A stretch of DNA of 23,909 nucleotides from Actinomycetes bacterium (GTDB taxonomy: Bacteria > Actinomycetota > Acidimicrobiia > Acidimicrobiales > JAKAOS01), in contig JAJYGW010000363.1 in assembly GCA_021790615.1 (NCBI GenBank), positions 1-23,909 on the forward strand, written 5' to 3'. Shown here piece after piece: positions 16,177 to 19,702 of the stretch (its first letter is position 1; every line of letters begins with the position of its first letter). The notes under the pieces are model-generated. The model searched no databases and was not told where the DNA came from. It saw nothing but the letters and a program-made list of their open reading frames with translations. A program made the translations under genes and the position numbers.

Positions 16177-16953
16177 TTACAGAGTCGGCCGCCACGCCTC
16201 GGCTGCCGCGACGTCACCAAAGGTCTCGAGGTCGAGGCCCGGCATTCCGGTGTCGCTCGTGGAGCCGGCAGAACCACGCCGCCACAGCCACAGGTCGAGT
16301 GCCCAGGCCGGACCACGCACGGCAACGTCCGCCTTCAGGTGAGCGGTCGCGTACACGCGATTGCCGGTGTCGATCGTCCACTCGGCGTCGGATGTGTCCG
16401 TGGCGTGCAGATGGACGCTCAAGTCGTCGCCGAGCTGAAGGTCCTCCCAGCTCACCTGCTTGTGGCCGCTGATGAGGAGGAAGTCGCCGATGCCGTCGGC
16501 GGCGAAGGCCGGGTCGACCGGCTCCACTTCCGCACCTGCAGCGAGCTCGGCGTCGACGCGGTGGATGAGCGTCTCGTGTGCCTGCCGCCTCCACCAGAAC
16601 CCGACCGGTGCTCCCGTCCCCTCGGCGAAGTTCCAGGCCCGGTCATCCTCGGTCCTCGCCCGGAGTAGCCCGAGAAGGACGTCGAGTCGGTCGTGGAGCC
16701 AGTCTGCCGGTGACTGTTCTGCGGGGCGCTCCGGGATCGTGCGGCGATCGAGAACCTCATCGGGGTCACCCTGCAGAGCGACTGTGACCATGGCGTAGAC
16801 GCGACCCAGGTGGTTGGCGAGGTCGGCGAGGGTCCAGTCGGGGCAGCTCGGGATGCGCTGCTCGTGTGCGGGCAGGGTCGCCATCTTGGTCGCGAGCTCG
16901 AGGATGCGTGTCGCATCCCGCTCGATGTGCTCCAGCGCCAGGTCTCGTTCCAT
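16177..16953 (-). CDS. Maleylpyruvate isomerase family, mycothiol-dependent enzyme (MDMPI/DinB fold)
   Basis: 258 residues from ATG 16953 (MERDLALEHIERD). In-frame upstream ATGs would give a poorly conserved extension towards the tRNA. The N-terminal four-helix DinB-like domain carries the metal-site pattern of the family: H48 in CPDWTLADLANHLG, then E127 and H131 in AHETLIHRVDAE. The C-terminal MDMPI-C domain follows from about residue 150. Family members use mycothiol or act as thiol transferases, which agrees with an actinomycete. The exact reaction is unknown because most paralogues are not true maleylpyruvate isomerases. The gene is divergent from tRNA-Glu and has no strong ribosome-binding site. 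Confidence 0.88.
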   Translation of the reverse strand: MERDLALEHIERDATRILELATKMATLPAHEQRIPSCPDWTLADLANHLGRVYAMVTVALQGDPDEVLDRRTIPERPAEQSPADWLHDRLDVLLGLLRARTEDDRAWNFAEGTGAPVGFWWRRQAHETLIHRVDAELAAGAEVEPVDPAFAADGIGDFLLISGHKQVSWEDLQLGDDLSVHLHATDTSDAEWTIDTGNRVYATAHLKADVAVRGPAWALDLWLWRRGSAGSTSDTGMPGLDLETFGDVAAAEAWRPTL

Positions 16954-17037
16954 GGTGAGAGTCTGGCGCGACGAGGCCAACCGTGAATCGCCCGGCCGTT
17001 GCCTCATGTCAAGACCTCCGGGAGCGGGTGCCACTGG

Positions 17038-17043
17038 TAGCAT
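17038..17043 (+). promoter_or_regulatory. Possible -10 box for tRNA-Glu
   Basis: TAGCAT fits TAnnnT and lies 33 nt before the mature tRNA 5' end. A convincing -35 is not visible, so confidence is low. Confidence 0.25.
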
Positions 17044-17076
17044 GGTCGGGCCTTGCGCGCCGGTCCGGTGCGTCTC

Positions 17077-17152
17077 GGCCCCATCGTCTAGAGGCCTAGG
17101 ACACGACCCTCTCAAGGTCGAGACACGGGTTCGAATCCCGTTGGGGCTGCCA
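17077..17152 (+). tRNA. tRNA-Glu (anticodon CUC)
   Basis: Cloverleaf by eye: acceptor GGCCCCA/TGGGGCT (first pair G-U), D stem GTCT/GGAC, anticodon stem CGACC/GGTCG with loop CTCTCAA and anticodon CTC, T stem ACGGG/CCCGT with TTCGAAT. Discriminator G is followed by an encoded CCA, unlike the tRNA-Gln in this window. Length is 76 nt including CCA. Confidence 0.95.
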
Positions 17153-17259: not shown

Positions 17260-17691
17260 TCACGGCGCTTCTGAAGACGCGCAGAGACGCTTGGCAAGCT
17301 CGTCGGCGCCCCGGTCGGGGTGTGAGCGGTGGCTCGCGTTCTCGGCCACGACGTTTGCTCCCTTGGCTTCGAGCGATCGGCGCAAGGTGGCGAGCGTGGC
17401 GCGAGGATTGGCCGCGTAGGTGCAGAACACCGCAGCCGGCTTGCCTCCCATCGCAGGCAGTCGTCCGATCGCGTTGAGCGCGGCCTTGGCAGGCCCGACC
17501 TTCACGACGATGAAGCCCTCTACCCACGATCCGACGGCGACCGCGTCGGCGTGCTCGATGTCGTCCGCTGTCGTCTCGGCCAGTGCTTTCAGCGTGGCAT
17601 CCGAGCCACAAGCCCGTACCGCCGCGGCTACCGCCTCAGCAGCGCGGCGGGTTCGACCACTGCGGCTTTCGTAGGCAATGAGTACGTTCAT
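17260..17691 (-). CDS. Flavodoxin-domain protein
   Basis: 143-residue FMN-binding protein of the flavodoxin/protoporphyrinogen-oxidase-like class. The start MNVLIAYESRSGRTRRAAEAVAAAV contains the phosphate-binding loop S9-R-S-G-R-T14 after the first beta strand. A further strand and loop AVAVGSWVEGFIVVKVGPAKAALNAIGRLP matches the flavodoxin region that stacks on the flavin. KPAAVFCTYAANP is the fourth strand. ATG 17691 is preceded by AGGAGG at 8 nt, which decides this start over the longer open frame reaching 17817. It probably transfers electrons or acts as a small oxidoreductase; the partner is unknown. Confidence 0.85.
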   Translation of the reverse strand: MNVLIAYESRSGRTRRAAEAVAAAVRACGSDATLKALAETTADDIEHADAVAVGSWVEGFIVVKVGPAKAALNAIGRLPAMGGKPAAVFCTYAANPRATLATLRRSLEAKGANVVAENASHRSHPDRGADELAKRLCASSEAP

Positions 17692-18139
17692 GTGCTTCCT
17701 CCTGTGTCCGGGTCGGCGCGTCCCCTGATAGGACGGCAGCCAGCCACACGTAGTCCAGCTTGTCACCATCGAAGTGCGATGATCTTCCGGGCGTTGGCTG
17801 GCGGGCAACGATCCCACGACCCGGCGCGGGACCCGTGGCCGGACCTGGCTGCGTCGTCTTCCCTTCGGCCACGACTGAGCACCGGCCGGTCGACTGCGCG
17901 GGCGGGCGGTCCGGCGACTAGCCTGACTGCCTCAGGCGCGGCTGTTAGTGCCCGCTGATGAGCGGGAACAGTGGCGCTTGGTGACGCTCGCTGTTCCGTG
18001 GTTGTCGCGTGCTCGTACGCGATCGCCACCGTCACACGTCGGTCAGGCACGTAGCTAGGCACATATCGAACAGGTCTGTCGGTTCGGAGCAAGCCGCGGA
18101 TGAACATTTGCGGCGGACCTGAGGAAGGACTCGGAAGCC
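17692..18139. other. 448-bp intergenic region upstream of two divergent genes
   Basis: Separates the flavodoxin-domain gene (minus) from the YVTN-thioredoxin selenoprotein gene (plus). It should hold both promoters. An open frame at 17763-18107 (minus) has weak third-position bias and no recognisable motif. Two adjacent hairpins lie at 17951-17996. I found no tRNA-like T-arm that could belong to a tRNA-Sec. Confidence 0.6.
17951..17996 (+). promoter_or_regulatory. Adjacent inverted repeats upstream of the selenoprotein gene
   Basis: CCCGCT/AGCGGG forms a perfect 6-bp stem with loop GATG (17951-17966). Immediately next, GAACAGTGG pairs with CGCTGTTC-type sequence (17966-17996, GAACAG/CTGTTC core plus wobble pairs). 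No T-run follows. These may be protein-binding sites or a structured leader; their role is unknown. Confidence 0.3.
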
Positions 18140-19702
18140 ATGATCCGCGACCAGGGCAGGCGACCGGCAGATGGCGGCTCTGCTCCCGAAGGCTTCAGCC
18201 TGAGTGGCACCGTCGAGCTCGGTGGCCCGGCCGCGGCGGCCTGCCAGGTGCCCGGCGACCCAGCCGGCTCCTTCACGGTCCTCGGCGAGGTGGAAGTAGG
18301 CCTCGATCCGGAAGGAGTCGTGGTCGACCGGAACACGAACCGCGCTTATGTTGCATGCTCCCGCTCGAACAGCGTGACGGTGGTGGACATCGCGAGCATG
18401 TCGGTCGTCGATCGGATCGAGGTCGGGCGCGAGCCGATCGACGTCGAGTTCGACGATGAGTCCGGTCTGCTCTTCACTGCCGACGCTCGGTCGAACCAGA
18501 TATCGGTGATCGACGTCCGAAAAGGGCGGCTCGTCGGGGCGGTCCCGGTCGGCACGATCCCGGCAGGCCTCGCGTTAGACCGTGCCGGGCGCCGGTTGTA
18601 CAGCGGGGACACCATGAGCGCGTCCGTGAGCGTCGTCGACGTCGATCGTCTCGAGCGGATCGCCTCGGTGCCCGCCGAGCTTGGCGCGGGAGCCGTCGCC
18701 GTGGAACCGAGAACTCGGCGCCTCTATTGCGTCAACTTCGTCACCGCCACCGTCACGGTCGTCGATACCGAGAGCCTCGAGGTCGTGGCGACGATCCCGG
18801 TGGGAGAGGGTCCCTGTGCCGTGGCCATCCGCCCCGGCACGTCAGATGTCTTCGTCGTCAACTCGCTCGCATCGACGGTCGTCCGAATCGATGGGACCAC
18901 GAATGTGGCGGTGGAGGAATTCCCCGTGCCGAACGCTCCGGTTGGTCTGTTCGCGGGCCCGGCGGGGGACCGCCTCTATACGGCGAACAGGGGCGATGGC
19001 ACCGTGAGCGTGCTCGGCCTCGACGGCACCGAGTGGGGTCGCGCGCGCGTCGGCACGGCACCCGGCGGCGTGATCGTCCACCCCGAAGAGCCCGGCCTCG
19101 TCCTCGTTGCGAATGCAGGGACCGGCTCGCTCAGCCTGCTCGAAGACACGCTCTCCGGGCCGTCTGCCACCGAAGCGCGAGACAGCGTCCACCCCCTCGT
19201 TGGAGAGCGTGTGCCCGGCTTTGCATTGCCCGACCTCCGCACGGGCAAGGTGCGGCACCAGAGCGAATGGGCGGAGAAGAAGTACATCCTCAACTTCTTC
19301 GCCAGTTGGTGAGGCCCGTGCAACGCGGAGGCGCCGGTCATCGAGGACCTGCGTCGCCGTACAAGCCGGTCGGGCTTGGAGATCATCTTGGTGAACGTGT
19401 GGGAAGGCGTGAACGCTGTGGCCGAGGCCACGAGCTTCTGCGACCTCTGGGGAATTGGGGGAACCGTGCTCCTCGACGAGTCAGGGGAGCTCGCCGAGCG
19501 CCTCGGCATCAGGGGTGTGCCGACGAACGTCTTCGTCGATGCCGATGGGGTGGTCTCGGCCGTAGGGGCTGTGAGGCCGGAGGAGCTCGAACGAGAGACC
19601 CGCCGGTTGCTCGGCCCGGACGTCGAGATCGAAGCCCCGGGACGCGCGCAGATGGGCGCCGATCTCGGCAACGTCGAGCACCATGTCAGCTCGCGCGCCT
19701 GA
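18140..19702 (+). CDS. Selenocysteine-containing YVTN beta-propeller/thioredoxin (TlpA-redoxin) fusion protein
   Basis: Read through one in-frame TGA (19310-19312), this is a 520-residue protein. Residues about 40-345 are YVTN-type beta-propeller repeats (for example AYVACSRSNSVTVVDI, RLYTANRGDGTVSVLGLDG). Residues about 353-505 are a redoxin/TlpA thioredoxin domain: VGERVPGFALPDL, YILNFFASW, then TGA-G-P-C, APVIEDLRRR, and cis-Pro P461 in GVPTNVFVDADG. The TGA falls exactly where the nucleophilic Cys of W-C-x-P-C belongs (position 391); C394 is kept. Frame and G/C third-position bias continue for 129 codons after the TGA. A stable hairpin follows at SECIS distance. I therefore infer Sec391 (U-G-P-C). 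No signal peptide is visible, so it is probably cytoplasmic. The ATG is preceded by a purine-rich tract (GAGGAAGG, with GGAAG nearer). The alternative is a nonsense mutation of a TGC or TGT codon. Convergent with, and overlapping by 17 bp, the DUF429 gene. Confidence 0.8.
19325..19360 (+). promoter_or_regulatory. Candidate bacterial SECIS element
   Basis: An imperfect hairpin starts 12 nt after the TGA. Pairs: 19325-19328 with 19357-19360, 19330-19334 with 19351-19355, and 19336-19339 with 19346-19349: 13 pairs in all, two of them G-U, separated by two 1x1 mismatches. The apical loop is ATCGAG (19340-19345), 27 nt after the TGA, within the 16-37 nt range accepted for bacterial SECIS. A G in the first two loop positions, a common bacterial rule, is not met in this fold, so SelB recognition is unproven. 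Confidence 0.55.

What the first reader, a model, noticed from the sequence alone, without database searches (positions are those of the whole stretch)
19298..19325. In-frame TGA at the catalytic cysteine of a thioredoxin domain: likely new selenoprotein
The ORF ending ...FFASW and the ORF resuming GPCNAEAP are in one frame, separated only by TGA. Together they rebuild W-[TGA]-G-P-C, the thioredoxin active site, with the TGA exactly at the nucleophilic position where Sec replaces Cys in known selenoproteins. Coding bias and fold (cis-Pro P461-T462) continue for 129 codons. Ordinary annotation would report a truncated propeller and a separate headless thioredoxin.
Basis: partly seen in the sequence, partly recalled or inferred. 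Interest (0 to 1): 0.95.

Follow-up and report, generated by a model that had tools for sequence, protein, structure and literature searches.

The report
Hidden propeller-thioredoxin selenoprotein family
In an uncultured actinobacterium, and in the 15 related copies whose DNA was read, one gene carries a stop codon exactly where the key sulfur amino acid of a thioredoxin enzyme should be; the cell likely reads it as selenocysteine, so this would be a selenium enzyme that protein databases list only as truncated pieces.

Summary
TGA 19310-19312 joins a 390-codon seven-bladed propeller to a 129-codon ResA/TlpA-like thioredoxin part in one frame, as W-TGA-G-P-C. All 16 full-length copies read as DNA have TGA there. 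Of 59 database orthologues, 58 end exactly at ...FASW, i.e. at the TGA. The 10 carriers tested have SelA and SelD (10 of 10), SelB (9 above cut-off, one just under) and tRNA-Sec (9 of 10); 0 of 22 same-family genomes without SelA has the gene. In two genomes it directly follows selA-selB-selD-selC. All 18 Sec-formate dehydrogenase genes found in 12 of the 14 carrier genomes have a SECIS loop GGUCU or AGUUU 18 nt after UGA. The new gene has a matching GGUC-type hairpin 55-58 nt after UGA, outside the published 16-37 nt range, behind another predicted hairpin; subtracting that 37-nt insert leaves 18 nt. I conclude, from sequence only, that this is a new selenoprotein family with an unusually spaced SECIS. 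Sec insertion, SECIS function and substrate are unproven, and RNA covariation support is modest.

The parts
18140..19309 (+). N-terminal part: about 42 low-confidence residues, then a YVTN/YncE-type seven-bladed beta-propeller (28 predicted strands, residues 45-336) and the start of the thioredoxin domain up to ...NFFASW
19310..19312 (+). In-frame TGA, predicted Sec codon (residue 391), nucleophile position of the W-U-G-P-C motif
   Evidence: TGA in 16 of 16 copies; 58 of 59 database orthologues end immediately before it
19313..19702 (+). Rest of the ResA/TlpA-like thioredoxin domain: Cys394, Pro461 (cis-Pro place), C-terminal helix, terminal TGA
   Evidence: Redoxin PF08534 62.3 bits on the joined protein; codon-level selection continues
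19325..19360 (+). Predicted RNA hairpin 1 (36 nt), starting 12 nt after the UGA, between UGA and the candidate SECIS hairpin
   Evidence: folds; more stable than synonymous-codon shuffles, mean z -2.45 over 12 sequences (weakest in L080, z -0.44)
19362..19378 (+). Predicted RNA hairpin 2, the candidate SelB-binding SECIS: 6-bp stem, loop GGUCG at 19368-19372, 55 nt after the UGA
   Evidence: GGU at or next to the apex in 16 of 16; GGU fully unpaired in the loop in 11 of 16, against 9% of synonymous variants on average; same loop motif as Sec-FdhA genes of these genomes; loop Arg codon CGG in 12 of 12

Best explanation
The in-frame TGA at 19310-19312 is likely decoded as selenocysteine, so the 520-codon frame would encode one propeller-thioredoxin selenoprotein. 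Shown: one frame, TGA in 16 of 16 copies, Sec machinery in the carriers tested, and a predicted hairpin with the loop motif of the FdhA SECIS elements of the same genomes. Inferred: SelB carrying Sec-tRNA-Sec binds the GGUC loop of hairpin 2. Hairpin 1 starts 12 nt after the UGA, as the FdhA SECIS stem does, and folds away 36 nt, so that hairpin 2 is presented to the ribosome as if it were 18 nt from the UGA. Inferred: the product is a cytosolic thiol-disulfide oxidoreductase (no export signal noticed by eye; no predictor was run). Sec391 attacks a disulfide and Cys394 resolves the mixed selenide. The propeller, with four nearly invariant cysteines (C35, C73, C197, C226), binds the partner or acts as its redox relay.
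For: TGA at the same codon in 16 of 16 full-length copies (10 including the window's own, L082 and L087, L162, L165-L167; tally). 58 of 59 database orthologues end at ...FASW; P0055 is a partial record ending earlier. In the C-terminal search, of 120 hits 49 end at W, 53 are headless and start after the TGA, one has Trp at the position, and 17 are ordinary WCxxC thioredoxins at 30-37% identity. tRNA-Sec at 60-70 bits (cut-off 47) in 13 of 14 carrier genomes (9 of 10, G376, G470/G583/G751); in the exception, G005, the selD match ends 118 bases from the contig start, where selC would follow. SelA above cut-off in 10 of 10 carriers tested, SelD in 10 of 10, SelB in 9 of 10 with G001 at 233.7 against 242.25 bits. 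Gene in 10 of 13 SelA-positive and 0 of 22 SelA-negative genomes of the family, Fisher p 1.6e-6. The gene follows selC in G018 and G029, and lies on the contig of the sel operon and fdhA in G004 and G022. G018 and G029 have no PF00384 match with a TGA, so this gene may be the main user of the Sec machinery there. SECIS comparison: 18 of 18 Sec-FdhA genes have loop GGUCU (12) or AGUUU (6) 18 nt after UGA. Synonymous codons kept at codons -8 to +15, 0.81-0.83 against 0.60-0.66 expected. Synonymous-shuffle folding tests.
Against: No experiment. Loop spacing of 55-58 nt breaks the published 16-37 nt bSECIS rule. Hairpin 2 is part of the global minimum-energy fold of the 96-nt stretch in only 4 of 10 sequences. 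Folding of the whole 72-nt region is only weakly beyond shuffles, mean z -1.17 against -0.35 (sd 1.11) for 96 control windows; the hairpin windows were chosen after seeing the fold and have no size-matched control. Synonymous conservation is not unique to the region: codons -164 to -153 show 0.73 against 0.56. Covariation in the plain MAFFT alignment is modest: 3 pairs with both sides changed against 1.6 in shuffles, 66 of 500 shuffles reach it. In 5 of 16 sequences the first G of GGU pairs in the predicted fold. Copies are related, so the tests are not independent. The tRNA-Sec family also passes its cut-off at 47-50 bits in four SelA-less genomes and in 5 of 14 control genomes, so scores near the cut-off mean little. 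SelA, SelB and SelD were not searched in G376, G470, G583, G751. Three SelA-positive genomes of the family lack the gene (G008, G019, G031; 86, 92 and 68% complete). SelB of G001 scores just below the curated cut-off.
Confidence: 0.9

Rival explanations
1. The TGA is an ordinary stop: the propeller is a complete protein, and the thioredoxin part is a separate, re-initiated downstream gene.
For: Annotation pipelines call it that way. A TTG start at 19376 gives a 108-aa ORF.
Against: The first part ends inside the predicted thioredoxin domain, after strand 382-387 and Trp390. The second part would lack that strand and the first half of the redox motif. A chance stop would not stay TGA (0 TAA, 0 TAG of 16), nor sit exactly at the nucleophile position, nor co-occur with SelA.
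Confidence: 0.04
2. UGA is read as tryptophan or another amino acid by a changed code or plain readthrough, without selenium.
Against: The same gene terminates in TGA in 10 of the 12 copies checked, the window among them. A Trp in place of the catalytic Cys or Sec would abolish the redox motif. Carriers hold Sec machinery, and 12 of 14 hold FdhA genes with a TGA at the known Sec site.
Confidence: 0.03
3. Sec is inserted, but hairpin 1 (whose stem starts 12 nt after UGA, at the FdhA position) is the SelB-binding element, and hairpin 2 is incidental.
For: Position and stability of hairpin 1: mean z -2.45. Its loop lies within 16-37 nt.
Against: Its predicted loops (AUCGAG, UUGA, UCGA; [quoted passage not shown]
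Confidence: 0.17

Closest known systems
Redoxin family selenoprotein, PF08534, UxxC (PMC13188914 Table 1), which I take, by inference, to be Prx-like 3 of PMC2398784 Table 2
   Same: Same Pfam domain and UxxC motif with Sec at the first position
   Different: Prx-like 3 was reported with 68 Sec and 2,608 Cys forms in the GOS set; the passages seen mention no propeller. Here the domain is fused behind a seven-bladed propeller and no Cys form was found. The representative HEU0032618.1 could not be compared.
ResA/TlpA thiol-disulfide oxidoreductases (4nmu, 1st9)
   Same: Sequence similarity and motif of the C-terminal domain
   Different: Cys instead of Sec; the hits seen are 162-269 aa proteins without a propeller
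Sec formate dehydrogenase (FdhA) SECIS of the same genomes
   Same: CC-GGUC-x-GG or similar hairpin top in 12 of 18, and 12 nt between UGA and the first stem
   Different: FdhA loop 18 nt after UGA in 18 of 18; here 55-58 nt, with a 36-nt hairpin in between
NCBIfam NF041054 WAxxUGC_long, ResA-like selenoprotein
   Same: ResA-like, with a Sec motif by its name
   Different: 50.8 bits against a cut-off of 300; motif UGC instead of UGPC
YncE / archaeal S-layer YVTN propellers
   Same: Propeller fold
   Different: Matched in the propeller part only; no Sec known for them (recalled)

Membership tests
bacterial selenoprotein gene | in-frame UGA at a conserved redox position, conserved across orthologues | tested here: met
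   16 of 16
bacterial selenoprotein gene | SelA, SelB, SelD and tRNA-Sec in the genome | tested here: met
   for 10 carriers; (tRNA-Sec only) for four more; SelB of G001 just under cut-off but inside the selA-selB-selD-selC run; tRNA-Sec missing in G005 at a contig end
bacterial selenoprotein gene | selenium in the protein | not testable with these tools
   needs 75Se labelling or mass spectrometry
consensus bSECIS model (PMC13188914 Fig. 2 legend) | 4-16 bp upper stem, 3-9 nt apical loop, G in the first two loop positions | tested here: met
   hairpin 2: 6-7 bp stem with GGU at or next to the apex in 16 of 16; in 5 of 16 the first G is paired and the loop is GUC or GUU
consensus bSECIS model (PMC13188914 Fig. 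2 legend) | 16-37 nt between UGA and the apical loop | tested here: not met
   55 nt in 14 of 16 and 58 nt in L087 and L162
Redoxin family UxxC selenoprotein | PF08534 domain with UxxC | tested here: met
   62.3 bits, cut-off 26.6; W-U-G-P-C if TGA is Sec
Redoxin family UxxC selenoprotein | similarity to the representative sequence HEU0032618.1 | not tested
NF041054 WAxxUGC_long | curated score cut-off 300 bits | tested here: not met
   50.8 bits
YncE-type beta-propeller | PF21783 score and seven-bladed fold | tested here: met

The most novel reading that the evidence does not exclude
A Sec-obligate enzyme family, with no Cys form, that uses a new class of bacterial SECIS: a structured spacer hairpin at the ribosome entry folds away 36 nt so that a standard SelB-binding GGUC hairpin can act from 55-58 nt. 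In the protein, Sec391 exchanges electrons with a four-cysteine site of the propeller.
Probability: 0.4. Interest if true: 0.85.

Novelty: new variant of a known kind. Interest (0 to 1): 0.75.

Why it matters
It would add a selenoprotein family spread over several Actinomycetota families and, judging by the truncated proteins, Streptomyces. More than a hundred database entries would be fragments of it. No cysteine counterpart was found, so a Sec/Cys-pair search would miss it, and its SECIS spacing lies outside the distance window of the published bSECIS model. The spacer hairpin makes a concrete question testable: how far from UGA a bacterial SECIS can act if the RNA between is folded.

Tried and rejected
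Ordinary stop, changed code and sequencing error were considered and set aside (see rivals). Rfam gave no SECIS family at this place; the only match up to E 10, WT1-AS_4 at 14.1 bits against a cut-off of 60, is noise. A covariance model of the two hairpins, built from 12 sequences, was searched in 14 genomes: it found this gene at E 1.8e-13 or better in the 11 carriers among them (10 of these by construction; only G376 was new to the model), nothing strong in G008, G019 and G031, and all other matches were E 0.004 or worse. So no further selenoprotein with this SECIS was found there. PLSDB plasmids: 0 of 458 matching records cover 80% of the query, and the 15 rows shown are matches at 27-37% identity. 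The rows listed hold 16 further matches with a TGA; I fetched 14 of them (all but G040:C23 and G006:C34): nine show an ordinary WCxxC motif, two look like selenoproteins (L247, L251), three (L249, L253, L254) gave no convincing motif. The Foldseek and VIA-align rows shown are propellers; the thioredoxin fold was not searched alone. Distances between Sec391 and the four propeller cysteines were not measured, as no coordinates were in the script box. The third homologue search and the second structure job were not used.

Literature: the searches (listings) and the table of PMC13188914 show no propeller-thioredoxin selenoprotein. Seen: PMC13188914 abstract, section 5, section 7 parts 1-2 of 3, and passages; PMC9312934, PMC5029168 and PMC2398784 passages only; PMC12013277 abstract start, with none of six terms found in its text; PMC4498112 abstract start in a listing only; PMC12013261 not held. 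The collection holds open-licence papers only.

Full report

CONSERVATION OF THE TGA. Of 60 relatives searched, 10 (G001, whose copy equals the window's, among them) hold a full-length orthologue at 55-100% identity, all with W-TGA-GPC. A scan of named genomes gives eight of these again under public names, such as Acidimicrobiaceae (L081) and Actinomycetes, and adds L082 (Acidimicrobiaceae) and L087 (Actinomycetota). Samples of 396 genomes of the phylum (2 carriers, one new) and 397 of the order (10 carriers, three new) add G376, G470, G583 and G751. In all, 16 of 16 copies have TGA. In the 5.8-billion protein set, 58 of 59 orthologous entries (P0002-P0060) end exactly at ...FASW; P0055 is a partial record. 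Where named, they are called YVTN, YncE family or hypothetical protein, from Acidimicrobiales and Streptomyces. The C-terminal search gives the mirror image: of 120 hits, 49 end at W, 53 are headless thioredoxins (one, P0122, the window's own), 17 are ordinary WCxxC proteins at 30-37% identity, and P0123 has Trp at the position. No family member with Cys at 391 was seen. The limit is that only 8,000 candidates were scored and 120 listed, but a Cys form would share more words than the truncated forms and so should be among them.

SELENIUM MACHINERY. G001, which shares all sampled words with the window, carries selA, selB, selD and selC in a row on contig C47 (9633-13792). Of the 10 carriers among the 60 relatives, SelA and SelD are above cut-off in 10, SelB in 9 (G001 233.7 against 242.25 bits), and tRNA-Sec in 9. 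In the tenth, G005, selD ends 118 bases from the contig start, where selC would follow. Four further carriers have tRNA-Sec at 60-67 bits; SelA, SelB and SelD were not searched in them. The tRNA-Sec family also passes its cut-off, at 47-50 bits, in four SelA-less relatives and in 5 of 14 control genomes, so I rely on the scores of 60 bits and more. Within the family of 35 genomes the gene is in 10 of 13 SelA-positive and 0 of 22 SelA-negative genomes (Fisher p 1.6e-6; relatedness not corrected). In G018 and G029 the order is selA-selB-selD-selC-gene, with 119 and 108 bp between selC and the matched part of the gene. In G004 and G022 the gene, a Sec-FdhA gene and the sel operon lie within about 13 kb. 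G018 and G029 have no PF00384 match with a TGA, so there this gene may be the main reason to keep the Sec machinery.

THE SECIS. All 18 PF00384 matches with an internal TGA in the 14 carrier genomes (they fall in 12 of them) read as Sec-FdhA: NQAR[IV]-U-HS in 12 and CNRT-U-HAPSV in 6. All have a 12-nt spacer, a 6-bp stem and loop GGUCU (12) or AGUUU (6), 18 nt after UGA. The new gene has a hairpin with CC-GGUC-x-GG or a near variant at its top (UC-GGUC in L085 and L086, GGUU in L166), 55 nt after UGA in 14 of 16 and 58 nt in two. Its stem differs between sequences while pairing is kept: CAAG/CUUG, CAGG/CCUG, CAGA/UCUG, and with a bulged U CCAG/CUGG and CGAG/CUCG. Between UGA and this hairpin lies a predicted 36-nt hairpin that starts 12 nt after UGA. 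55 minus 37 (hairpin 1 plus one A) is 18, the FdhA spacing. By a strict test (GGU unpaired in the loop of a hairpin of 5 bp or more) 11 of 16 native sequences pass, against 9% of synonymous variants on average; in the other five the first G pairs. Hairpin 1 and hairpin 2 are more stable than synonymous shuffles, mean z -2.45 and -1.74 over 12 sequences. Synonymous codons are kept more than expected at codons -8 to +15, and the Arg codon of the loop is CGG in 12 of 12.

AGAINST. The spacing breaks the published 16-37 nt rule, although that review also says that some bSECIS elements do not fit the model. Hairpin 2 is in the global fold of 96 nt in only 4 of 10 sequences. Whole-region energy is weakly special: mean z -1.17 against -0.35 (sd 1.11) for 96 control windows of the same size; the two hairpin windows were chosen after seeing the fold and had no size-matched control. 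One upstream window, codons -164 to -153, shows a similar excess of kept codons (0.73 against 0.56). The covariation measures on the plain alignment are modest. Rfam has no SECIS match. The model of both hairpins finds no second gene of this kind.

MECHANISM. Shown: one frame, TGA in 16 of 16, machinery in the carriers tested, shared loop motif. Inferred: SelB binds the GGUC loop of hairpin 2, and hairpin 1 acts as a folded spacer. Inferred: Sec391/Cys394 form the redox pair. C35 (70 of 72), C73 (73 of 74), C197 (72 of 74) and C226 (74 of 74) are nearly invariant in the propeller, so a redox or binding partnership between the propeller and Sec is my preferred reading, untested.

NOVELTY. The table of 119 families and subfamilies in a 2026 review (PMC13188914) has no propeller-thioredoxin selenoprotein, and no NCBIfam selenoprotein model of June 2026 reaches its cut-off. 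The nearest entry is the Redoxin UxxC family, which I take to be the Prx-like 3 family of the GOS paper with 68 Sec and 2,608 Cys forms; its representative could not be compared. I rate this a new family (new variant of a known kind) with an unusually spaced SECIS.

Noticed in passing
L223 (G001:C162) and L222 (G001:C47); 18 loci in all, L222-L239: Sec-formate dehydrogenase genes with an in-frame TGA in 12 of 14 carrier genomes, two types (NQAR[IV]-U-HS and CNRT-U-HAPSV), all with the same short SECIS.
   Followed up: yes
L247 (G052:C1:40300-41100) and L251 (G044:C60:14900-15600): Stand-alone TlpA-like proteins with W-TGA-PAC and W-TGA-GPC, likely further Sec thioredoxins, each with a predicted AGUUA or AGGUG loop at about 25-34 nt.
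   Followed up: partly
   Followed up: no
P0123: A 173-aa JGI protein with Trp at the Sec position; either TGA translated by table 4 or a real TGG.
   Followed up: no
window 18140-19309, residues 35, 73, 197, 226 of the joined protein: Four nearly invariant cysteines in the propeller part.
   Followed up: partly
G053: A relative with tRNA-Sec at 67.6 bits and SelD above cut-off but no SelA match: incomplete assembly or a partly lost Sec system.
   Followed up: no
window 17260-17817 (-) and 16177-17115 (-): Neighbours upstream: a flavodoxin-like protein and a mycothiol-dependent maleylpyruvate isomerase-like protein; I did not notice them next to the gene in the relatives listed.
   Followed up: partly
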